In this document: in pieces, positions 4,393 through 14,510 of the stretch
Position numbering within the stretch: position 1 is the stretch's first letter
Layout of the letters: every line of letters starts with the position of its first letter
Origin: Ferrovibrio sp.
GTDB taxonomy: Bacteria; Pseudomonadota; Alphaproteobacteria; Ferrovibrionales; Ferrovibrionaceae
Length of the DNA: 58,864 bases
Assembly (NCBI RefSeq): GCF_029255545.1
Contig: NZ_JANLJJ010000091.1
Span: forward strand, 1 to 58,864
Reading direction: 5' to 3'
Translations under genes and position numbers: made by a program
The notes under the pieces: model-generated
The model's database searches: none
Told to the model about the DNA's origin: nothing
Seen by the model: only the letters and a program-made list of their open reading frames with translations

Positions 4393-5307
4393 CTATTCAG
4401 CCCAGAATTTGGCGATTGCGTCGGCGAGATCCTCGCCGTAGAGATCCTTGAAGAAATGATCCGCGCCATCGATCGTGATGGTGCGGATTTTTTCTGCGCG
4501 CTTTGCTGACTGCAGTTTCTGCGGCAGATCCTTCACCACCTCATCGGCACCGGCGATTGCCAGCAGCACGGGGCGATTGATACGGGCCAACTGGCTCGGC
4601 GTATCGTTGCGGCCATCGCCGCTATGGTAATCGAGGAAGGTCGCGGCCGCCACGCTGGTTTTCGGACAGTACAGGAAATCCGTGCCGGTCAGCAGCTCAG
4701 CGCCCTTGCCGGCAGAAACCAGTGCTTCAGCCTTTGCGGCAATCGCGTTGAAATCGCCGCCGAAGCGCACCTTGTATTCGGCTGGCGCGGCGGCACGGTC
4801 AAAGGTTGCCGGCGCTGCCAGCACAATCTTCTGCAATGCCGTCGGCAGCTTTTCTCCCGCTTGCGCGGCGTACCAGGCAACCTGGGCGCCGCCGCGCGAA
4901 TGTCCGAGCAGGCCGATCTTCGCCGCGCCCGCCTTGCCGGCCCAGTCGATCCAGGCGGCGATCTCGGCCGCGGCCTGGGCATTGCCGTGGCGATGCGGCA
5001 CGGCGCAATCATACATGCCCTTGCGGTCGGAAACGCCCAGCGACAGCGTCACCGCCACGGTGGAAAGCCCGCGTTCCGCCAGCGTCTCCTGCAGCGCTTG
5101 CATGATCTCCATGCGGTTATGCGCCAGCGTGCCATGCACCAGCACCATGACGCCGTCGCGCAGCGCCTTGCCGCCGGCCAGCTTCAGTTCGCCGTCCAGC
5201 CCACGTCCTTCCTGCACCAGCCGTATCGGCTCGGCACGGACCAGCCCTGTCAGAGACAACAAAGCGACCAGGCTCAGCCCCAACATCCGGCGACGGTTAT
5301 GCGACAT
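4393..5307 (-). CDS. Exported alpha/beta hydrolase
   Basis: 304-residue alpha/beta-fold hydrolase with an N-terminal signal (RRR, then a hydrophobic stretch ending at RAEP), so probably periplasmic. Visible motifs are the oxyanion region MVLVHGT near residue 56, the nucleophile elbow GHSRGG with Ser137, and a C-terminal GADHFF His. One Cys (101) lies in MYDCAVPH. The start follows AGGGAGAA at good spacing. It is divergent from soxS, with 64 bases between the two starts, so the two may share control. The substrate is unknown. The start was moved inward from an upstream in-frame ATG at 5355. Confidence 0.75.
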   Translation of the reverse strand: MSHNRRRMLGLSLVALLSLTGLVRAEPIRLVQEGRGLDGELKLAGGKALRDGVMVLVHGTLAHNRMEIMQALQETLAERGLSTVAVTLSLGVSDRKGMYDCAVPHRHGNAQAAAEIAAWIDWAGKAGAAKIGLLGHSRGGAQVAWYAAQAGEKLPTALQKIVLAAPATFDRAAAPAEYKVRFGGDFNAIAAKAEALVSAGKGAELLTGTDFLYCPKTSVAAATFLDYHSGDGRNDTPSQLARINRPVLLAIAGADEVVKDLPQKLQSAKRAEKIRTITIDGADHFFKDLYGEDLADAIAKFWAE

Positions 5308-5371
5308 GCGTTTTTCTCCCTGTGCAGGCCCGGCTATTGATCGCAGGCGGACCATAAAATAACATCAATCT

Positions 5372-5764
5372 ATGATATTTTTTAAAGTTGCACAATTCAT
5401 ATGTGTTATAATGATTGGATTATGGGCGGCCCTGCCGGCCCATGCCCAGCCCCGGGAGCTTGTCATGTTCGAGCGCCAGGATTGTTCCTGGTGCAAGGCC
5501 TGGCATCGCGAAGTCGGCCCGGGCTACGACAAGTCCGAAGAAGGCCGGCAGGCGCCGCTGCGGCGCGTCGACCTTGACAGGGACTGGCCGGCCGACCTGC
5601 CCCGGCTGGGCATCCGCTATACGCCGACCTTCGTTCTGATGACGTGTGGGCACGAGATCGGTCGACTCGTAGGCTATCCCGGTGCGGATTTCTTTTATCC
5701 CAAGGTTGAGGCTCTACTCGAGCAATCGCAGGGCAATGGAAAAACATCGGGAAATTGCGGTTAA
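5372..5764 (+). CDS. soxS: Periplasmic thioredoxin-like protein SoxS
   Basis: 130 residues: a signal peptide (about 1-25, ending PAHA), then a thioredoxin-like fold with active site Cys38-Ser-Trp-Cys41 and a cis-proline loop YTPTF. In Paracoccus, SoxS is the periplasmic thiol oxidoreductase that keeps SoxY active by reducing adducts on its carrier Cys. It is the first gene of the sox cluster, as in that organism. Two further Cys occur at 92 and near the C-terminus. The start lacks a clear ribosome site, but it is the only one giving a full signal peptide. No soxV/ccdA electron donor is in the window. Confidence 0.75.
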   Translation: MIFFKVAQFICVIMIGLWAALPAHAQPRELVMFERQDCSWCKAWHREVGPGYDKSEEGRQAPLRRVDLDRDWPADLPRLGIRYTPTFVLMTCGHEIGRLVGYPGADFFYPKVEALLEQSQGNGKTSGNCG

Positions 5765-5807
5765 CGCGATGCGACAAAACACCACTTGCAAAATGTGGAA
5801 TGAGTTT

Positions 5808-5824
5808 GTTATGGACACGATAAC
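5808..5824. promoter_or_regulatory. Inverted repeat GTTAT-N7-ATAAC in the soxS-soxX gap
   Basis: The 118 bases between soxS and soxX contain this 5+5 bp inverted repeat, followed by a CAGCC/GGCTG hairpin at about 5831-5846. It is a candidate operator for soxX. No convincing -35/-10 pair was found, and the cluster carries no visible soxR regulator, so the role is only inferred. Confidence 0.25.
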
Positions 5825-5882
5825 CTTCAGCCTTGCAGGCTGGCCTGACCGGATGACCGGCAGAGAACGATCGGGAGGAATG

Positions 5883-6356
5883 ATGCGCCAGATGCGCCTA
5901 CTTACAGCTTGCCTTGCCGGCACCGCCGCCATGCTGGCCGCGACCGTTTCGTTCGCCCAGGAAATCCGCGATGCCAACCTCACCCCCTATGCGGTGAAGG
6001 ATTACGCCATTGAGAAATCGCTGACCGGCAAGCCCGGCGATCCGGCCAAGGGCCGGCAGATCGCCACCACCAGCGGTCAGGGCAACTGCGTGATCTGCCA
6101 CAAGATGCCGATCCCCGAGGTCGCCTTCCGCATCGGCAATGTCGGCCCCGACCTGACCGAGGTGGGCGGACGCCTGACAGCGGCCGAAATCCGCATGCGG
6201 ATCGTTAATCCCAAGCTGCTCAACGAAGAGACCATCATGCCGGCCTATTACCGCGTGACCGGCCTCAACCGCGTCGACAAAAAAGCCCAGGGCAAGCCGA
6301 TGCTGAGCGCCGAGCAGGTCGAAGACCTGGTCGCCTATCTTTCGACGCTGAAATAA
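5883..6356 (+). CDS. soxX: Sulfur oxidation c-type cytochrome SoxX
   Basis: Monohaem cytochrome subunit of the SoxAX complex, which couples thiosulfate oxidatively to the Cys of SoxY in the periplasm. The 157 residues have a signal peptide cut near FAQ-E and a haem site Cys69-Val-Ile-Cys72-His73. A distal Met ligand is likely in EETIMPAYY, as in known SoxX. The ATG at 5883 is four bases after GGAGG; ATG 5880 is too close to that site. It starts the soxXYZA run, ahead of soxY by 32 bases. Confidence 0.95.
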   Translation: MRQMRLLTACLAGTAAMLAATVSFAQEIRDANLTPYAVKDYAIEKSLTGKPGDPAKGRQIATTSGQGNCVICHKMPIPEVAFRIGNVGPDLTEVGGRLTAAEIRMRIVNPKLLNEETIMPAYYRVTGLNRVDKKAQGKPMLSAEQVEDLVAYLSTLK

Positions 6357-6388: not shown

Positions 6389-6865
6389 ATGACCGCATCG
6401 TCTCAATCCCTCAACCGCCGCGGCCTCAGCCGCCGCCAGGCCGTCGCCGCCCTCGGGCTTGGCAGCGTCGTCGTCACCCTGGTCCCGCTCAGCGCCGAGG
6501 CAACGCCGGAAAGCGCCAAGAAGATGCTTGGCGATCTGGTCAAGGCCGCGCCGAAAGCCGGCAAGGTGCAGATCAAGACTCAGGAAATCGCCGAGAATGG
6601 CAACACCGTGCCGGTCACCATCTCGGTCGAAAGCCCGATGACCGACAAGGACTACGTGAAGGAAATCCATGTCGTGTCCGACAAGAACCCGCAGCCGGGC
6701 GTCGCCAGCTTCATGCTGACCCCGGCCAATGGCAAGGCGGAAGTGCAGTTCCGCATGCGCATGGCGGAAACCCAGAATGTCATTGCGGTCGCGGTGATGA
6801 GCGACGGCAGCGCCTGGACCGCGGCCCGCGAGGTCAAGGTCACCATCGGCGGCTGCGGCGGCTGA
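6389..6865 (+). CDS. soxY: Thiosulfate carrier protein SoxY
   Basis: Sulfur carrier subunit: sulfur intermediates are bound covalently to the Cys of its flexible C-terminal arm. The 158 residues end in GGCGG with Cys156, the family hallmark. The N-terminus carries a twin-arginine signal (SRRQAVAALG), fitting export as a folded SoxYZ complex with SoxZ riding along. The start follows AGGAG at proper spacing. Neighbour soxZ is 45 bases downstream. Length and motif fit the family fully. Confidence 0.97.
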   Translation: MTASSQSLNRRGLSRRQAVAALGLGSVVVTLVPLSAEATPESAKKMLGDLVKAAPKAGKVQIKTQEIAENGNTVPVTISVESPMTDKDYVKEIHVVSDKNPQPGVASFMLTPANGKAEVQFRMRMAETQNVIAVAVMSDGSAWTAAREVKVTIGGCGG

Positions 6866-6910: not shown

Positions 6911-7240
6911 ATGGCTGCAGACATCAAACCGCGTATCCGCGTACCGCAGACCGCCAAGAAGGATGAGATCATCGAGATCAAGACGCTGATCTCGCATCCG
7001 ATGGAATCCGGCCAGCGCAAGGATTCGCAAGGTAAAATCATCCCGCGCAAGATCATCAACAAGATGACGGTTGCCTTCAACGGCAAGCCGGTTTTCGAGG
7101 CCAAGCTGGAGCCCTCGATCTCGGCGAACCCGTACCTGTCGTTCTTTCTGAAATGCAGCGCCAGCGGCAATCTGGATTTCACGTGGACGGATGACGACGG
7201 CAGCGTCTACAAGGCGACGCAAGCCATTACGGTGGCCTGA
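6911..7240 (+). CDS. soxZ: Thiosulfate carrier partner SoxZ
   Basis: 109-residue partner of SoxY, an immunoglobulin-like fold without signal peptide; SoxZ is exported as a complex with SoxY through the Tat path. Family features are the opening KPRIRVPQTAKKDEIIEIKT, the phrase LISHPMESGQRKD, and a C-terminal half SFFLKCSASG...FTWTDDDGSVY. The start follows AAGGA. It precedes soxA by only 10 bases, so the two are probably co-translated. No unusual features are seen. Confidence 0.97.
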   Translation: MAADIKPRIRVPQTAKKDEIIEIKTLISHPMESGQRKDSQGKIIPRKIINKMTVAFNGKPVFEAKLEPSISANPYLSFFLKCSASGNLDFTWTDDDGSVYKATQAITVA

Positions 7241-7250
7241 GGTGCCGCGC

Positions 7251-8117
7251 ATGCCCCGCCTGCGCTCCCCCCTGCTCACCGCCGCAGCGGCGTTGGCTGT
7301 ACTTGGCAGCCTGGCCGCCTGCGATGGTGACAAGTCGAAATCGGCCGCGATGGCCGATTCCGGCGATCCGCTGGCGCAATACCGCGCCAACCCGAAATAC
7401 AAGGCCTTCATGGCCGGCGAGAAGATGTCGGGCTATGTTTTCGCCTCGCCCGAGACCCAGGCGATGCAGGACGACGACTTCGAGAATCCCGGTATGCTGG
7501 CCGTACAGGATGGCGAGGAAGAATGGAGCAAGGTGGAAGGCGCCGCCGGAAAGTCCTGTGCCTCCTGCCACCAGGATGCGGCGAAAAGCATGAAGGGCGT
7601 CGCCGTCAGCTATCCGAAATTCGAGCCCAAGCGCGGTAAGCTGGCCAATATCGAGCACCGCATCAATCTTTGCCGCACCGAGCATATGAAGGCGCCAGAG
7701 CTGAAATGGGAATCCAAGCCCCTGCTCGGCCTGACCGCCTATGTCGAGCATCAGTCGCGTGGCCTGCCGATCAGCGTGAAGGTCGATGGTCCGGCAGCCC
7801 CCTTCTTCGAGGAGGGCAAGAAATTCTACTATACCCGACGCGGCCAGATGGATATCGCCTGCGCGCAATGCCATGAACAGAATCCCGGCATGAATATCGG
7901 CGTCGAGAATCTGAGCCAGGGCCAGTCGAACGGGTATCCGACCTATCGCCTGAAATGGCAGTCTTTCGGATCGCTGCATCGCCGCTTCGAAGGCTGCAAT
8001 CAGGAAGTCCGCGCCGAGCCCTATCCGCGCGGTTCCGACGAATACACAAACCTTGAACTCTACGTCGCCTGGCGCGGCAACGGGCTGAAGTCCGAAGCTC
8101 CCAGCGTCCGCCGCTAA
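7251..8117 (+). CDS. soxA: Dihaem sulfur oxidation cytochrome SoxA, probable lipoprotein
   Basis: Catalytic subunit of SoxAX, forming the disulfide between thiosulfate and SoxY. The 288 residues hold two haem sites, Cys103-x2-Cys106-His107 and Cys204-x2-Cys207-His208. Cys141 (NLCRTEHM) is the axial ligand of haem 1. Cys249 (FEGCN) is the haem-2 ligand and active-site Cys that becomes a persulfide. This is the dihaem type found in Paracoccus and Rhodovulum. Oddly, the signal ends with a lipobox LAAC (Cys24) followed by Asp. That predicts a lipid-anchored protein rather than the usual soluble one. A GTG at 7242 is an alternative start in frame. Confidence 0.95.
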   Translation: MPRLRSPLLTAAAALAVLGSLAACDGDKSKSAAMADSGDPLAQYRANPKYKAFMAGEKMSGYVFASPETQAMQDDDFENPGMLAVQDGEEEWSKVEGAAGKSCASCHQDAAKSMKGVAVSYPKFEPKRGKLANIEHRINLCRTEHMKAPELKWESKPLLGLTAYVEHQSRGLPISVKVDGPAAPFFEEGKKFYYTRRGQMDIACAQCHEQNPGMNIGVENLSQGQSNGYPTYRLKWQSFGSLHRRFEGCNQEVRAEPYPRGSDEYTNLELYVAWRGNGLKSEAPSVRR

Positions 8118-8219: not shown

Positions 8220-9929
8220 ATGTTGAGCCGCCGCGATATCCTCCAGGCGTCCGCCGCCGCTGCCGTTCTGCTTGGCAGCGGTATGCGCGTCGGCGCCGCT
8301 GCCGCCACGCAGAAGATCAATCAGGCCGATCTGTTGCGCTTCCAGCCGGTCGGCCAGGTCACGCTGCTGCATTTCACCGATATTCACGCCCAGCTGGTTC
8401 CGCTGTATTTCCGTGAGCCAAGCGTGAATATCGGCGTTGGCGAAGCACTTGGCCTGCCGCCGCACCTGGTCGGCAAATACCTGCTGGATCAATACGGCAT
8501 CAAGGCCGGCACGCCGGAAGCTCATGCGCTGGCCTATCCCGATTTCGTGCAGCTGGCCAAGGACTATGGCCGGTTGGGCGGCGTGGCTCATATGGCCACG
8601 CTGATCAAGGCAATCCGCGCCGAACGGCCGAACAACACGCTGCTGCTGGATGGCGGCGATACCTGGCAGGGCAGCTACACCTCGCTGGCGACCAAGGGCG
8701 CCGACATGGTGAAGGTGATGGAGGCCCTGGGCGTCGATGCCATGACGGCGCATTGGGAATTCACCTACGGCGCCGAGCGCGTGAAAGAGCTGGCCGAAGG
8801 GATGAAAATCCCGTTCCTGTGCGGCAACGTGAAGGACAACAGCTTCGGTGACGCGGTATTCGACGCGATCAAGATGTTCGAGCGCGGCGGGGTCAAGATC
8901 GCCGTGATCGGCCAGGCCTTCCCCTACACGCCGATTGCCAACCCGCGCTATATGATCCCGGACTGGTCGTTCGGCATCGAAGAGGAAAAGGTGCAGGAGC
9001 ATGTCGAGGCGGCGCGCGCCCAAGGCGCCGAGCTCGTCGTGCTGCTCAGCCATAATGGTTTCGATGTCGACCGCAAGCTTGCGGCCCGGGTCAAGGGCAT
9101 TGACGTCATCCTTACCGGCCACACCCATGACGCCATCCCCGCGCCGGTGAAGGTCGGCAACACCCTGCTGATCGCGCCGGGCAGCCATGGCAAGTTCCTC
9201 GCCCGCCTCGATTTGCAGGTGAAGGACAAGCGCGTCACCGATTACCGCTTCCGTCTGATTCCGGTCTTCTCCGATGCCATTGCGCCTGACCCGGCGATGG
9301 CGAAACTGGTCGATGAGGTACGCGCGCCACACAGGGCGGTGCTCGACAAGGTTTATGGCCGCGCCGACTCGCTGCTATACCGTCGCGGCAATTTCAATGG
9401 CACCTTCGACGACCTGATCTGCCAGGCGATGATCGCCGAGCGTGAGGCGGAAATCGCGCTGTCGCCCGGCTTCCGCTGGGGCGCGACCCTGCTGCCCGGC
9501 CAGGATATCACCGGCGACATCCTCTATTCGCAGACCGCGATTACCTATCCGAATGTCTATCGCAACCAGATGACCGGCGAATTCCTCAAGACCGTACTGG
9601 AGGACGTCGCGGACAACCTGTTTAACCCGGATCCCTATTACCAGCAGGGCGGCGACATGGTGCGGGTTGGCGGGCTGGCCTACACCATCGATATCGCCAA
9701 GCCGATCGGCCAGCGCATCTCGAACATGACGCTGCTGCGGACCGGCCAGCCGATCGATCCGGCCAAATCCTATGCCGTGGCCGGCTGGGCCTCGATCAAC
9801 GAGGGGACCGAAGGACCGCCGATCTACGATCTGGTCGGCAAATACATCGCCACGCAAAAGACGGTGAAGATTCCTGAAAACCGCAGCGTGAAAGTTGTCG
9901 GCGCCGATCAGCGCGGTATTGCCGGCTGA
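8220..9929 (+). CDS. soxB: Thiosulfohydrolase SoxB
   Basis: Periplasmic dimanganese hydrolase of the 5'-nucleotidase/metallophosphatase family that releases sulfate from SoxY-bound thiosulfonate. The 569 residues start with a twin-arginine signal (SRRDILQ). Metal-site motifs are DIHAQ (Asp54, His56), LLDGGDTWQGS, LLSHNGFD and LTGHTHDA. The SoxB-specific insert PHLVGKYLL and a C-terminal nucleotidase-like domain are present. Full family length. The start follows GAGGAACAGAGAG. It is separated from soxA by a hairpin and a palindrome, unlike the tight spacing elsewhere in the locus, and is followed by soxC after 25 bases. Confidence 0.97.
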   Translation: MLSRRDILQASAAAAVLLGSGMRVGAAAATQKINQADLLRFQPVGQVTLLHFTDIHAQLVPLYFREPSVNIGVGEALGLPPHLVGKYLLDQYGIKAGTPEAHALAYPDFVQLAKDYGRLGGVAHMATLIKAIRAERPNNTLLLDGGDTWQGSYTSLATKGADMVKVMEALGVDAMTAHWEFTYGAERVKELAEGMKIPFLCGNVKDNSFGDAVFDAIKMFERGGVKIAVIGQAFPYTPIANPRYMIPDWSFGIEEEKVQEHVEAARAQGAELVVLLSHNGFDVDRKLAARVKGIDVILTGHTHDAIPAPVKVGNTLLIAPGSHGKFLARLDLQVKDKRVTDYRFRLIPVFSDAIAPDPAMAKLVDEVRAPHRAVLDKVYGRADSLLYRRGNFNGTFDDLICQAMIAEREAEIALSPGFRWGATLLPGQDITGDILYSQTAITYPNVYRNQMTGEFLKTVLEDVADNLFNPDPYYQQGGDMVRVGGLAYTIDIAKPIGQRISNMTLLRTGQPIDPAKSYAVAGWASINEGTEGPPIYDLVGKYIATQKTVKIPENRSVKVVGADQRGIAG

Positions 9930-9954: not shown

Positions 9955-11232
9955 ATGACCGAGACGAAAGACAAGCCTTCACGGCGCAGCTTCCTGAAGA
10001 AATCCGTAGCCGCTGGCGGTTTTACCCTACTGGCCGGCGCTGGCGTAGGCGAGGCGATGGCGGCTGGCGAGGACAACCTGCCGCCGAATGTGCCGGAATG
10101 GATGAAGACGCTGGGCTCCGGCGTCACCGCCAATCCCTATGGCTCGCCATCGTCCTATGAGAAGAACGTGATCCGCCGCAATGTCGGCTGGCTCACCGCC
10201 ACGGAAGAATCGTCGATCAATTTCACCCCGATCCACGAGCTGGACGGCATCATCACGCCGAGCGGCCTGTGCTTCGAGCGCCATCACGGTGGCGTGCCCG
10301 AGATCGACCCTGAGCAGCATCGCCTGATGATCCACGGCCTGGTCGACCGGCCGCTGATCTTCACTATGGATGAACTGATGCGCTTCCCCTCGGTCAGCCG
10401 CATCCACTTCCTGGAATGCCCGGCCAATGGCGGCATGGAATGGAAAGGCGCGCAGATGGCCGGCGTGCAGTTCAGCCATGGCATGGTGCATTGCTGCGAA
10501 TGGACCGGCGTCAAGCTGTCTACCCTGCTGGCCGAAGTGGGCGTCCAGAAGGCAGCGAAATGGCTGCTGGCTGAAGGCGCCGATGCCGCCGCGATGACGC
10601 GCAGCATCCCGCTGGACAAGGCGATGGACGACATTATCGTCGCCTATTCGCAGAACGGCGAGCGCATCCGGCCGGAGAACGGCTATCCGCTGCGCCTGCT
10701 GGTACCGGGCTGGGAAGGCAACGTGAATGTCAAATGGCTGCGCCGCATCAAGGTCGGTGACCAGCCCTGGCATCACCGCGAAGAGACCTCGAAATACACC
10801 GACCTGATGCCGGACGGCAAAGCACGGCAGTTCACCTTCGTGCAGGAAGCCAATTCGGTGATCACCTCACCCTGCCCAGAAAAGCCGATGAAATTCGGCA
10901 AGGGTTTCTACGAGATTCGCGGCATCGCCTGGTCAGGCTATGGCAAGATCAAAAAGGTGGATGTCAGTATCGATGGCGGCATGAACTGGAAAACCGCCGA
11001 ACTGCAGTCGCCGGTCTTCTCCAAGAGCCTGACGCGTTTCCGCCTGCCGCTGCAATGGGACGGGCGACCGATGCTGCTGCAGAGCCGCGCAATGGACGAA
11101 AGCGGTTATGTGCAGCCCACCATCGAGGCGCTGCGCAAGGCGCGCGGCCTCAATTCGATCTACCACAAGAATTCGGTCCATACCTGGCGTGTGCTGCCGA
11201 CCGGCGAGGTGCAGAATGTCCAAGTCGCTTAA
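9955..11232 (+). CDS. soxC: Sulfane dehydrogenase molybdenum subunit SoxC
   Basis: Molybdenum-cofactor subunit of SoxCD, which oxidises the sulfane sulfur held on SoxY and gives the pathway its full electron yield. The 425 residues open with a twin-arginine signal (SRRSFLKKSVAAGG). The sulfite-oxidase fold has cofactor ligand Cys155 in HFLECPANGG, and a C-terminal dimerisation domain carries DVSIDGG and RFRLPLQWDG. The start at 9955 follows GGAGGAGGAAAC. The 3' end overlaps soxD by 17 bases, implying translational coupling. Presence of soxCD implies that no sulfur globules need form from thiosulfate. Confidence 0.96.
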   Translation: MTETKDKPSRRSFLKKSVAAGGFTLLAGAGVGEAMAAGEDNLPPNVPEWMKTLGSGVTANPYGSPSSYEKNVIRRNVGWLTATEESSINFTPIHELDGIITPSGLCFERHHGGVPEIDPEQHRLMIHGLVDRPLIFTMDELMRFPSVSRIHFLECPANGGMEWKGAQMAGVQFSHGMVHCCEWTGVKLSTLLAEVGVQKAAKWLLAEGADAAAMTRSIPLDKAMDDIIVAYSQNGERIRPENGYPLRLLVPGWEGNVNVKWLRRIKVGDQPWHHREETSKYTDLMPDGKARQFTFVQEANSVITSPCPEKPMKFGKGFYEIRGIAWSGYGKIKKVDVSIDGGMNWKTAELQSPVFSKSLTRFRLPLQWDGRPMLLQSRAMDESGYVQPTIEALRKARGLNSIYHKNSVHTWRVLPTGEVQNVQVA

Positions 11233-11875
11233 GCTGCTCTCTCTCGTTTTCGTCTGCAGCATTGCCCTGCCCGTCCTGGCGCAGGACAAGGCGCCACCCA
11301 AGCCTTTCGGCTTCGGCAAGCCTGCCACCAAGGAGCAGGTCGCCGGCTGGGATATCGATGTGCGTGGCCCCGACGGCGCCGGCCTGCCGCCCGGCAAGGG
11401 GACGGTCGCCGCCGGCGAGGAGCTGTATATGGCGCAATGCGCCGCCTGCCATGGCGAATTCGCCGAGGGTGCCGGGCGCTATCCAGAACTGGTCGGCGGC
11501 CGGGGCACGCTGAAATCGGAAGACCCGCGCAAGACCGTCGACAGCTACTGGCCGCACGGCCCCGGCGTGTTCGATTATATCCGCCGCGCCATGCCGTTTG
11601 GCGCGCCACAGAGCTTGTCTCCGGATGAAGTCTATTCCATCGTGGCCTGGCTGCTGAACCAGGCCGACCTGTGGCCCGCTGACAAGGACCTCGATGCCGC
11701 CGGCCTGCGTCAGATCAAGCTGCCGAACCGCGACGGTTTCATCGCCGGCGGCGATCCCCGACCCGATGTGAAGCCCGACACATGCATGACCAATTGCCGC
11801 AAGGCTCCGCCGAAAATCACCAGCGATCTGGCCGCCCGGCTGGGCGTGACGCCGACCCAGAAAACCGGCGACTGA
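11216..11875 (+). CDS. soxD: Sulfane dehydrogenase cytochrome subunit SoxD, short monohaem form
   Basis: Electron-transfer partner of SoxC in the periplasm. The 219 residues contain a signal peptide (about 1-22, LAQ), a single haem site Cys75-Ala-Ala-Cys78-His79 and a likely Met126 ligand in RRAMPFG. SoxD of Paracoccus is nearly twice as long and dihaem; here the second cytochrome domain is absent. The tail instead ends in a short Cys190-x3-Cys194 segment (DTCMTNC) and a basic end. GAGGTG precedes the ATG, which lies inside soxC. Identity is supported by position after soxC and by the PDV...C..NC tail. Confidence 0.88.
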   Translation: MSKSLKLLSLVFVCSIALPVLAQDKAPPKPFGFGKPATKEQVAGWDIDVRGPDGAGLPPGKGTVAAGEELYMAQCAACHGEFAEGAGRYPELVGGRGTLKSEDPRKTVDSYWPHGPGVFDYIRRAMPFGAPQSLSPDEVYSIVAWLLNQADLWPADKDLDAAGLRQIKLPNRDGFIAGGDPRPDVKPDTCMTNCRKAPPKITSDLAARLGVTPTQKTGD

Positions 11876-11877
11876 GC

Positions 11878-12336
11878 ATGTGGAGCCGACGCAGCCTGCT
11901 GCTGGCCGCTCTGCCGGCGGCAGGCTTATCCGCGATGCCGGGCATGGCGGTGGCGCAGAAATTCGCCGACCCGCAGCCCAGCATCGACAATCCGCGCAAG
12001 ATCGTGCTCAGCCTGTCGGAAGATGATCCGAAACGGATCAACGCGGTGATCAGCAACATCGTCAATATCCAGAAGTATTACGATGCCACCCAGGTAAAGC
12101 TGGCGGTGGTGGCCTATGGTCCGGGCATCGTCGCGGTGCTGAAAGGCCAGAGCCCGGTGGCGCAGCGCATTGCCGCCCTGCAGGACCTGGAGGTCGAATT
12201 CGTGGCCTGCGGCGCTACACTGGAAACCCTGAAGAAAACCCAAGCCGACCTGCTGCCCGATATCGCCGTGGTGCCCAATGGCCTGCCCGAGATCGTCGAG
12301 CGCGGCCTGCGTGGCTGGATTTACCTGCATCCGTGA
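11878..12336 (+). CDS. Tat-exported DsrE-family protein
   Basis: 152 residues. The N-terminus is a twin-arginine signal (SRRSLLLAALPAAG), with cleavage likely after VAQ. The rest is a DsrE/DsrF-like fold: KIVLSLSEDDPKRIN, KLAVVAYGPG, then EFVACGATLETL with the only cysteine (Cys111) at the position where DsrE-type proteins carry sulfur. Most DsrE proteins are cytoplasmic, so export is notable. It begins two bases after the soxD stop, so it is surely co-transcribed. The inferred role is sulfur binding or relay for Sox proteins in the periplasm; this is not proven by sequence. Confidence 0.78.
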   Translation: MWSRRSLLLAALPAAGLSAMPGMAVAQKFADPQPSIDNPRKIVLSLSEDDPKRINAVISNIVNIQKYYDATQVKLAVVAYGPGIVAVLKGQSPVAQRIAALQDLEVEFVACGATLETLKKTQADLLPDIAVVPNGLPEIVERGLRGWIYLHP

Positions 12337-12350
12337 TCCGGAGGCCCGTC

Positions 12351-12956
12351 ATGCTGACCCGTCGCACCCTGCTCCGCTCTGCTCTCGCCGCCGGCATCGC
12401 TCCGGCGCTGCTGCCTGGCCCGGCCCGCGCCACCAAACTGAACGACGACGGCCTGCATGTGGAGGACTGGTGGCTGGAGAGCTTCCTCGACCTCAAGCAG
12501 GACATTGAGGACGCCGCCGCCAAGGGCAAGCGCGTCGTGCTGAGCTTCGAACAACGCGGCTGCATCTACTGCGCCGAGATGCATGAGAAGCATCTCGCCA
12601 GCCCGGTGATCAGTGGCTATATCCGCAAGCATTTCGAGATGATCCAGGTCAACCTGTTCGGCGGTCGCGAGATCACCGACCTGGACGGCAAGGTCCTGCC
12701 CGAGAAGGACATGGCCCGCAAATGGGCGGTGACCACCACGCCGACGCTGTTCTTCCTGCCGCCGGCAGCCGGGGCTGTCTCGGTGAAAGACGCTGCTTCG
12801 GCCCGCATGCGTGGCCTGCTGCCGCCGCCGACCTTCCTGGCCATGTTCCGCTATGTGGCCGAGCGCGCCTACGAGAAGGGCGAGTTCCCCGCCTATGCCC
12901 GACAGCATGAAGCCGAGTTGGCCAAGGCCATCGCCGCCGGCACGCCGATCAACTAG
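12351..12956 (+). CDS. SoxW-like exported thioredoxin
   Basis: 201 residues with a twin-arginine signal (TRRTLLRSALAAG) and a thioredoxin-like fold: active site Cys71-Ile-Tyr-Cys74 and the cis-proline loop TTTPTLFF. The arrangement resembles SoxW, the periplasmic thioredoxin of sox clusters, and other DUF-type thioredoxin-fold proteins. A strong GGAGG precedes the ATG at 12351. It follows the DsrE-like gene by 14 bases. It probably reduces disulfides or sulfur adducts on SoxY or on the DsrE-like neighbour. It is the second thioredoxin of the locus besides SoxS. The name SoxW is by context, not by a diagnostic motif. Confidence 0.72.
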   Translation: MLTRRTLLRSALAAGIAPALLPGPARATKLNDDGLHVEDWWLESFLDLKQDIEDAAAKGKRVVLSFEQRGCIYCAEMHEKHLASPVISGYIRKHFEMIQVNLFGGREITDLDGKVLPEKDMARKWAVTTTPTLFFLPPAAGAVSVKDAASARMRGLLPPPTFLAMFRYVAERAYEKGEFPAYARQHEAELAKAIAAGTPIN

Positions 12957-12965
12957 ACTGGCGGC

Positions 12966-14510
12966 GTGACCCTGACGCGACAGGCCGGTTACGGCCTCAC
13001 CCTTTTCCTCACTTCGGCCGCCGCGCTGATCGTCGAGATCGTCGCCGGGCGCATGCTGGCGCCCTATGTCGGCATGTCGCTCTACACCTGGACAGCCATC
13101 ATCGCCGTGGTGCTGGCCGGACTTTCGGTCGGCCACTGGATCGGCGGCCGGCTGGCGGCGCCACAGGTCGCGCATCAGACCGCCCTGCGCGGCATCGCCA
13201 TCGCCCTGCTGCTGGCCGGCCTGACGGCCGGCGGTGCCGCGCCATTGCTGAAGGGGCTGGCCGCCCTGCTCGGCGGCAGTGACACGCCCCCGCTGCTGTT
13301 GATCACTCTGCTGGCCGCCGGCGTCTTCCTGCTGCCCAGCCTGTTCGTCGGCATCGTCTCGCCGGTGCTGACCAAGCTGGCGATCGACGACGCGCCACAT
13401 CACCAGGGCCCCATCATCGGCCGCATGTTCGCGCTGGGCGCCGCCGGCAGCATCCTCGGCACGCTCAGCGCCGGCTATGTGTTCATCTCCTGGATCGGCT
13501 CGACCGGCACCTTGCTGGCGGTGACCGCATTGTATCTGTTGTTTGCCATCCTGTTCTGGACTGGCGCCGGCAAGGTGAAGATCACCCTGCCGCTGGCCAC
13601 CCTGGTGCTGCTCGGCAGTTTCGGACTGGCGCAGTTGCCGGGCTTTGCTGCGCCATGCGAGCGGGAAAGCGATTATTACTGCATCCGCATCGTCGATTTT
13701 GCGCCCCAGAGCGGCCGGCCATCGGCCGCCATGGTGCTGGACCACCTGGCGCACAGCATCAACGACCGCGACGATCCCGGCCTGCTCTACAGCCCCTATC
13801 TGCATTTCGTCGCCCTGCGCACCGAACGCCTGCTGCAGGGCCGCGCACCGCAGGCCTATTTCATCGGCGGCGGCGCCTTCACTTTGCCGAGGGCCTGGGC
13901 CGCAAGATTTCCCGAGGCGAAACTGACGGTGGCCGAGATCGACCCCGTCGTCACCGCCATGGCCGCAAAGGCCATGTGGCTCGATCCCACCGCATCGGCG
14001 CTGGATATCCGCCATGCCGATGCGCGGCGTACGCTGGACATCCTGCCTGAGGACCGGCGTTTCGACCTGATCCTGGGCGATGCCTTCCATGATTACGCCA
14101 TCCCGCCGCATCTGGTGACGCGTGAATTCCATCAGCTGCTGCTGCGTCGGCTGGCGCCGCGCGGGGCTTATGCGATCAACGTGATCGACCAGAGCGAGAA
14201 TCCGCGTTTCACCTTCGCGCTGGTCAAAACAATGCAACGCGACTTCCCTGTCGTCGAGGTTTGGCTCGACGATGAAAGCCGCCGGCGCGGTGGCCGGGTC
14301 ACCTTCGTGGTGCTGGGCCTGCGTGAGGCGAGCGACGCGGCCGTGCTGCGCGCGATCGAACCATTCCGCCGCACCTGGCTACGCTGGCCGCAGAACGACC
14401 TCGACACGCGTATTGCTGCCGCAGACCTGCCGATATTGACCGATGATTTCGCACCGGTCGACCGCCTGATGGCCGGTTTCGTGCTGCGTCCTGACGAGAT
14501 GCTGCGCTGA
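12966..14510 (+). CDS. Membrane-fused spermidine-synthase-like protein
   Basis: 514 residues from a GTG start. Residues 1-215 form about seven membrane segments (opening GLTLFLTSAAALIVEIVAGR). The C-terminal part is a class I SAM-binding domain of the spermidine synthase family: AYFIGGGAFTLPRAW, VAEIDPVV, FDLILGDAFHDYAIP. The acidic gate residue region is present, but polyamine specificity cannot be judged. Such fused proteins are common and mostly uncharacterised. It lies nine bases after the SoxW-like gene and ends the plus-strand run, so it may be part of the sox transcript. A link with sulfur oxidation is only positional. Confidence 0.8.
   Translation: MTLTRQAGYGLTLFLTSAAALIVEIVAGRMLAPYVGMSLYTWTAIIAVVLAGLSVGHWIGGRLAAPQVAHQTALRGIAIALLLAGLTAGGAAPLLKGLAALLGGSDTPPLLLITLLAAGVFLLPSLFVGIVSPVLTKLAIDDAPHHQGPIIGRMFALGAAGSILGTLSAGYVFISWIGSTGTLLAVTALYLLFAILFWTGAGKVKITLPLATLVLLGSFGLAQLPGFAAPCERESDYYCIRIVDFAPQSGRPSAAMVLDHLAHSINDRDDPGLLYSPYLHFVALRTERLLQGRAPQAYFIGGGAFTLPRAWAARFPEAKLTVAEIDPVVTAMAAKAMWLDPTASALDIRHADARRTLDILPEDRRFDLILGDAFHDYAIPPHLVTREFHQLLLRRLAPRGAYAINVIDQSENPRFTFALVKTMQRDFPVVEVWLDDESRRRGGRVTFVVLGLREASDAAVLRAIEPFRRTWLRWPQNDLDTRIAAADLPILTDDFAPVDRLMAGFVLRPDEMLR

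What the first reader, a model, noticed from the sequence alone, without database searches (positions are those of the whole stretch)
11878..12956. Tat-exported DsrE-like protein plus Tat-exported thioredoxin behind soxD: possible new sulfur-relay module
Two genes follow soxD at 2 and 14 bases. The first is a DsrE fold with a single Cys (111) at the sulfur-carrying position and a twin-arginine signal. The second is a thioredoxin with CIYC and also a Tat signal. DsrE proteins normally work in the cytoplasm. An exported pair could take sulfur from, or repair, SoxY in the periplasm.
Basis: inference. Interest (0 to 1): 0.72.

Follow-up and report, generated by a model that had tools for sequence, protein, structure and literature searches.

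The report
Exported sulfur-carrier gene in sox operon
A small sulfur-handling protein of a family best known from inside the cell is here made for export and sits, with a known thioredoxin partner, in the operon for burning thiosulfate; the same link recurs in many sulfur bacteria, but what it does has not been shown.

Summary
Directly behind soxD (gaps of 2 and 14 bases) lie a DsrE-fold protein with a signal peptide and one cysteine (Cys111), and a thioredoxin (CIYC) with a signal peptide. A fused MFS/spermidine synthase follows 9 bases on. The AlphaFold model (pLDDT 92.4) matches MTH1491 (Z 21.2) and the DsrE/Tus group. Cys111 is invariant in 60 of 60 aligned rows.

The link to Sox is strong. 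Of the 80 loci kept from a scan of named genomes, 61 hold core sox genes; of the other 19, 17 genomes have SoxB elsewhere. In 398 sampled Pseudomonadota, 37 of 50 family carriers have SoxB, against 23 of 348 others.

Corrections: (1) the thioredoxin is SoxW-type (45-46% to the one at the soxW place in Bradyrhizobium). (2) The pair is not tied to soxCD: 40 of 48 checked genomes have no SoxC over the cut-off. (3) Tat is a clade trait, not a family trait. (4) Already in print: dsrE-soxW-soxH1 beside sox genes in Sulfurovum, raised on thiosulfate (PMC10045233), and a DsrE orf in Sulfitobacter sox clusters (PMC11034169). I found no functional test. Best reading: a periplasmic persulfide carrier or reset factor for SoxYZ, served by SoxV/SoxW.

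The parts
11878..12336 (+). DsrE-fold protein with signal peptide, 152 aa (signal about residues 1-26; single Cys111, codon 12208-12210)
   Evidence: PF02635; Cys111 in 60 of 60 rows; AF2 pLDDT 92.4; DsrE folds
12351..12956 (+). thioredoxin with signal peptide, 201 aa, CIYC (12561-12572), SoxW-type
   Evidence: Thioredoxin_2; 45-46% to the thioredoxin at the soxV-soxW-soxX place of three Bradyrhizobium loci
12966..14510 (+). fused MFS/spermidine synthase, recurring neighbour of this DsrE
   Evidence: NF037959, 609 bits; immediate neighbour of DsrE in 20 of 80 loci
5372..5764 (+). SoxS-like thiol-disulfide oxidoreductase (CSWC)
   Evidence: Thioredoxin_2 below cut-off; 46-48% to the gene at the soxS place in two Bradyrhizobium loci
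5748..6356 (+). SoxX
   Evidence: TIGR04485 over cut-off
6389..6865 (+). SoxY, ends GGCGG
   Evidence: TIGR04488 over cut-off
6911..7240 (+). SoxZ
   Evidence: TIGR04490 over cut-off
7242..8117 (+). SoxA
   Evidence: TIGR04484 over cut-off
8220..9929 (+). SoxB
   Evidence: TIGR04486 over cut-off
9955..11232 (+). SoxC
   Evidence: TIGR04555 over cut-off
11222..11875 (+). SoxD (cytochrome c), start chosen here
   Evidence: position behind soxC; homologues behind soxC in related loci; no SoxD model hit
4393..5355 (-). alpha/beta hydrolase with signal peptide by eye; homologues lie beside this DsrE in other sox loci
   Evidence: family F32

Best explanation
The gene at 11878 encodes a periplasmic DsrE-type sulfur carrier that serves the Sox system together with SoxW. 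Cys111 takes a sulfane sulfur (or a stuck sulfur adduct) from SoxYZ, or from periplasmic polysulfide, as a persulfide. The neighbouring SoxW, kept reduced across the membrane by SoxV (CcdA), discharges it, so that the sulfur is released or handed on and carrier and SoxY are reset. Shown here: fold, invariant lone cysteine, signal peptides (by eye), operon position, co-occurrence with Sox, and SoxV-like and SoxT-like genes side by side elsewhere in the same genome. Inferred: persulfide on Cys111, SoxYZ as donor, SoxW as reductant, direction of flow.
For: Gaps of 2, 14 and 9 bases. C111, T114 and G135 are invariant in 60 of 60 rows, window included, and 59 of 60 mature domains have just one cysteine. 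In the model Cys111 ends a strand at the start of a helix; the same cysteine aligns in MTH1491 and ST0148 and, weakly (E about 0.03), in 2fb6 and 2qs7. Of 80 loci kept (best 80 of 117), 61 hold core sox genes and 17 of the other 19 genomes have SoxB. A SoxW-type thioredoxin is in 44 of 80 loci, next door in 27; SoxV/CcdA in 37. Phylum sample: 37 of 50 carriers have SoxB against 23 of 348 (Fisher p 1.8e-25), and in 20 of the 37 the two genes lie within 10 kb (26 genomes measured, the other 11 by eye). Class sample: 15 of 18 against 25 of 367. Seen in Pseudomonadota and Campylobacterota. Sulfurovum dsrE, soxW and soxH1 are raised 2.17-3.83-fold in thiosulfate oxidation (PMC10045233, passages). 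CcdA-like and PF04143 genes are adjacent on another contig of this genome.
Against: I found no biochemistry. 13 of 50 phylum carriers lack SoxB (8 of them one genus, E 2e-15 to 8e-19), and 23 of 60 SoxB genomes have no family member at the threshold used, so the protein is an accessory. In the class sample only 11 of 22 matches lie near sox genes. Relatives (export not checked) lie away from sox clusters on Azospirillum, A. caldus and Hymenobacter plasmids. Sulfuricurvum loci showed no thioredoxin close enough to P0002 to be found, so a SoxW neighbour is not universal. The genomes share ancestry, so the p-values overstate independence.
Confidence: 0.5

Rival explanations
1. Repair factor: DsrE and SoxW do not carry pathway flux but clear mixed disulfides or over-loaded sulfur chains from SoxY, a job close to that of SoxS.
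For: [quoted passage not shown] No family member found in 23 of 60 SoxB genomes fits an accessory role. Presence with and without SoxC fits a general service to SoxY.
Against: A SoxS-like protein is already in this cluster (5372-5764) and in 22 of 81 stretches, window included. A lone-cysteine DsrE looks more like a sulfur acceptor than a disulfide reductase (inference).
Confidence: 0.25
2. Feeder to import: the DsrE hands sulfane sulfur to a SoxT (YeeE-like) transporter for cytoplasmic sulfur use or for signalling to SoxR.
For: SoxT-like and CcdA-like genes are adjacent in this genome. The SoxT paper proposes that periplasmic thiol proteins present SoxYZ-bound sulfur to SoxT (PMC11582611, passages). 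A Hymenobacter plasmid DsrE lies near a YeeE gene.
Against: SoxT is not in the DsrE operon here. With SoxCD present the sulfane sulfur can be oxidised in the periplasm without import (general knowledge).
Confidence: 0.15
3. General periplasmic buffer or scavenger for sulfide, polysulfide or other reactive sulfur, clustered with sox only by co-regulation.
For: 13 of 50 carriers in the phylum sample lack SoxB, and several plasmid copies have no sox cluster nearby.
Against: Strong SoxB co-occurrence, and soxD or soxB as the next gene in several groups.
Confidence: 0.1

Closest known systems
DsrE-fold proteins of the MTH1491 / ST0148 type (PF02635)
   Same: fold over the whole mature domain (MTH1491 Z 21.2, rmsd 0.8, 111 residues); aligned cysteine and similar C-terminal end
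   Different: their chains start with the domain itself (match begins at residue 2-5), while the window protein has a signal peptide; both are deposited as hypothetical or of unknown function
DsrEFH and TusBCD
   Same: fold (2hy5 chain A Z 13.2, 2d1p chain A Z 13.6)
   Different: one gene here, not a trio; signal peptide; identity 15% and 9%; residue-level match with their active cysteine not tested
SoxW (periplasmic thioredoxin, partner of SoxV)
   Same: the thioredoxin at 12351 is 45-46% identical to the one at the soxV-soxW-soxX place in three Bradyrhizobium loci
   Different: CIYC where 42 of 44 members have CPYC; encoded behind DsrE, not behind soxV
dsrE-soxW-soxH1 of Sulfurovum indicum
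   Same: DsrE and SoxW side by side at a sox cluster, raised in thiosulfate oxidation (PMC10045233, passages)
   Different: another phylum; the passage calls the two proteins thioredoxins and gives no sulfur-carrier mechanism; I did not have that sequence
orf2 (DsrE family) of Sulfitobacter sox clusters
   Same: DsrE-family gene inside a sox cluster, between soxB and soxC (PMC11034169, passage)
   Different: listed as unknown function; export not mentioned in the passage seen; sequence not compared

Membership tests
DsrE/DsrF-like family PF02635 | model score over curated cut-off | tested here: met
   33.2 bits, cut-off 22.7
DsrE/DsrF-like family PF02635 | DsrE fold | tested here: met
   model pLDDT 92.4; ten DsrE-type entries at Z 12.8-21.2, the next row (Tm0979) at 7.0
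DsrE/DsrF-like family PF02635 | conserved cysteine that carries sulfur | tested here: inconclusive
   cysteine invariant in 60 of 60 rows; that it carries sulfur cannot be tested here
DsrEFH / TusBCD complex | three linked genes forming a hetero-hexamer | tested here: not met
   two PF02635 matches at E 0.001 or better in the held genome (97.6% complete), on different contigs
DsrEFH / TusBCD complex | cytoplasmic location | tested here: not met
   signal peptide in P0001 and relatives, judged by eye; no experiment
SoxW | periplasmic thioredoxin with CxxC | tested here: met
   Thioredoxin_2, CIYC, signal peptide by eye
SoxW | homologue of the thioredoxin encoded between soxV and soxX | tested here: met
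   45-46% to three Bradyrhizobium proteins at that place; soxVW order from PMC5748708, passages
SoxW | reduced by SoxV | not testable with these tools
   a CcdA/SoxV-like gene exists in the genome
Sox operon component | genetic linkage with sox genes across species | tested here: met
   core sox genes in 61 of 80 loci; 17 of the other 19 genomes have SoxB
   SoxC in 25 of 80 loci; over cut-off in 8 of 48 further genomes (49 of the 55 loci without soxC were given; many are MAGs)
Tat substrate | twin-arginine signal conserved in the family | tested here: not met
   by eye RR in 10 of 14 members of the window's clade, KR in 4; one search's rough rule flags 5 of the 67 loci outside that clade

The most novel reading that the evidence does not exclude
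A periplasmic branch of the Sox pathway that is not in the textbook scheme: SoxYZ-bound sulfane sulfur is passed to an exported DsrE carrier and discharged by SoxV/SoxW, giving Sox bacteria with or without SoxCD a common route to take sulfur off SoxY for storage, import, release or signalling.
Probability: 0.35. Interest if true: 0.75.

Novelty: new variant of a known kind. Interest (0 to 1): 0.5.

Why it matters
How SoxYZ-bound sulfur moves on in bacteria without SoxCD is stated as unknown for H. denitrificans (PMC11582611, passages), and the role of SoxW is, to my recollection, also unsettled. A linked, exported, lone-cysteine protein of a sulfur-carrier fold with an obvious reductant next to it is a concrete candidate with one residue to mutate. 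Named isolates carry it (for example Rhodospira trueperi, Roseospira marina, Magnetospirillum sulfuroxidans and Bradyrhizobium japonicum SZCCT0153), so tests in culture are possible.

Tried and rejected
Rejected: that the association is chance or a local oddity. Rejected: that the thioredoxin is a new family. Rejected: soxCD-specific function. Rejected: DsrEFH membership.

Led nowhere or of little weight: PMC3511301 was a false lead (the text hit was DsRed). The passages seen of PMC13047784, PMC8528874, PMC10305379, PMC9237845 and PMC10318464 show no exported DsrE in a sox cluster. The automatic twin-arginine count misread the window's own N-termini and failed on several others, so its totals are used only as a rough outside-clade figure. 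The promoter and terminator scan found no more than shuffles. A profile comparison with the cytoplasmic-looking DsrE of the same genome lines Cys111 up with its cysteine but at probability 25%. The tree is poorly resolved (125 columns; 31 of 97 inner branches open; its deepest split has support 77). One search scored at most 9 candidates a genome, so absences there are soft. The home-made ORF caller misses some genes, for example the thioredoxin of L072. A model of DsrE with SoxYZ or SoxW could not be run. Print searches: (open-licence PMC only; of 29 papers, 20 were listed).

Full report
What is there. The window carries a sox operon: a SoxS-like thioredoxin (5372-5764), soxX, Y, Z, A, B, C (each over its NCBIfam cut-off) and soxD by position. 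Behind soxD follow a DsrE-fold protein (11878-12336), a thioredoxin (12351-12956) and a fused MFS/spermidine synthase (12966-14510; 609 bits), with gaps of 2, 14 and 9 bases.

The DsrE protein. PF02635 scores 33.2 bits against a cut-off of 22.7. An AlphaFold2 model from a 60-row alignment, window included, has mean pLDDT 92.4. Its best solved match is MTH1491 (Z 21.2, rmsd 0.8 over 111 residues), then ST0148 (19.1), YchN (14.5), BT1422 (14.0), TusBCD chain A (13.6), SSO1126 (13.4) and DsrEFH chain A (13.2); after ten DsrE-type entries the next row is Tm0979 at 7.0. Cys111 is the only cysteine; it closes a strand and opens a helix. Cys111, Thr114 and Gly135 are invariant in 60 of 60 rows, and 59 of 60 mature domains have one cysteine. 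The residue two after the cysteine is Asn in 54 of 60 rows but Ala in the window, Ferrovibrio and three Acetobacteraceae/Roseomonadaceae sequences (Tyr in one more).

Export. The N-termini I could read have a hydrophobic signal by eye (22 proteins, 82; a few starts are uncertain; no predictor was available). In the window's own clade (14 rows, SH-aLRT 98) 10 DsrE signals have RR and the four Elioraea have KR; all 13 SoxW-type thioredoxins called in that clade have RR (by eye). Outside it the rough rule flags RR in 5 of 67 loci. So export is the family trait and Tat, if real, a clade trait.

The thioredoxin. It is 45-46% identical to the thioredoxin encoded between soxV/CcdA and soxX in three Bradyrhizobium loci; soxVW order is described for B. 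diazoefficiens in PMC5748708 (passages). That makes it SoxW by place and homology. It has CIYC where 42 of 44 members have CPYC; the Ferrovibrio MAG has CIFC. SoxW is named a periplasmic thioredoxin reduced by SoxV (a reference title in PMC10451225). The own genome has a CcdA-like gene (C116:5918-6676) beside a SoxT-like gene (C116:6704-7912) on another contig.

Association with Sox. A scan of genome contigs with five close relatives found 117 loci and kept the best 80. In 61 of 80 a core sox gene lies in the same stretch (up to 10 kb each side, many cut by contig ends): SoxB in 55, SoxC in 25. A SoxW-type thioredoxin is in 44 (next door in 27, within two genes in 34), SoxV/CcdA in 37, the MFS/spermidine synthase next door in 20. 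For the other 19 loci, 17 genomes have SoxB elsewhere; the two without (L073, L103) are MAGs. In 385 genomes of the class, 15 of 18 P0001 carriers have SoxB against 25 of 367; of the 22 matches in that search 11 lie near sox genes by my reading, and 11 do not. In 398 Pseudomonadota the family model hits 50 genomes; 37 of these have SoxB against 23 of 348, and in 20 of the 37 the two genes lie within 10 kb. Eight of the 13 exceptions belong to one genus with weaker scores. The own genome is in all these samples, and relatedness inflates the p-values. Plasmid records add Methylosinus trichosporium OB3b (soxZ-soxB-DsrE-DsrE-DUF302), Sulfurovum mangrovi (soxXYZA, then MBL hydrolase, DUF255, DsrE, DUF302, DsrE) and Indioceanicola (a sox cluster with SoxW and DsrE). 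Of the 19 plasmid records matched I opened six; Azospirillum, A. caldus pLAtc2 and Hymenobacter copies have no sox cluster nearby (one weak SoxA-like match in Hymenobacter).

Not tied to SoxCD. Of 48 further genomes (49 of the 55 loci without soxC), 8 have SoxC over the cut-off, nine more only a weaker homologue, 31 none; many are MAGs. The Magnetospirillum genomes and four of the Magnetovibrio MAGs or isolates carry DsrE and SoxW-type with no SoxC found. In three Bradyrhizobium and five Roseomonas-type loci (L058, L063, L064, L066, L068) a DsrE also follows soxD; the Bradyrhizobium ones fall in another, weakly supported, branch, so the place behind soxD may have been reached more than once.

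In print. Sulfurovum indicum: dsrE, soxW and soxH1 beside soxABXYZ, up 2.17-3.83-fold in thiosulfate oxidation, the first two called thioredoxins (PMC10045233, passages). Sulfitobacter: orf2, DsrE family, between soxB and soxC, unknown function (PMC11034169, passage). I saw no paper that gives an exported DsrE a sulfur-carrying role in Sox in the searches; the library holds only open-licence papers, and most hits were seen as listings only.

Mechanism. Shown: fold, lone invariant cysteine, signal peptides by eye, operon and genome co-occurrence, and genes for a SoxV-SoxW electron path. Inferred: persulfide formation on Cys111, SoxYZ as partner, discharge by SoxW. A carrier, a repair factor and a feeder for SoxT differ mainly in the direction and fate of the sulfur and cannot be told apart by sequence. 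I give 0.5, 0.25 and 0.15, and 0.1 to a general scavenger.

Noticed in passing
4393-5355 (-): An alpha/beta hydrolase with a signal peptide (by eye) is divergent from the sox operon; homologues sit beside DsrE in two Bradyrhizobium, two Roseospira and two Rhodospira-type loci (family F32). Its role is unknown.
   Followed up: partly
12966-14510: A fused MFS/spermidine synthase is an immediate neighbour of DsrE in 20 of 80 loci; a polyamine-type enzyme tied to a sox sulfur protein is unexplained.
   Followed up: partly
L135:5918-7912 (G000 contig 116): A CcdA/SoxV-like gene lies beside a SoxT-like YeeE gene, on the same strand as what looks like a tungstate/molybdate ABC transporter (read by eye).
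   Followed up: partly
L098-L122 (Sulfuricurvum and other Campylobacterota): DsrE in a recurring order soxB - porin - SoxH-like hydrolase - DsrE - DUF302-domain protein, sometimes with a second DsrE. DUF302 also follows DsrE on Methylosinus and Sulfurovum plasmids.
   Followed up: partly
P0001 residue 113: The Asn two after the reactive cysteine (54 of 60 rows) is Ala in the window and four relatives, all in the clade with RR signals.
   Followed up: no
L138 (Sulfurovum mangrovi plasmid): soxB between soxA and the hydrolase matches in several pieces and has no listed gene, so it looks interrupted or mis-sequenced.
   Followed up: no
L060: A contig filed as Stygiobacter (Ignavibacteriota) carries a Magnetospirillum-like sox/DsrE cluster and groups with Magnetospirillum sulfuroxidans in the tree; probably a binning error.
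   Followed up: no
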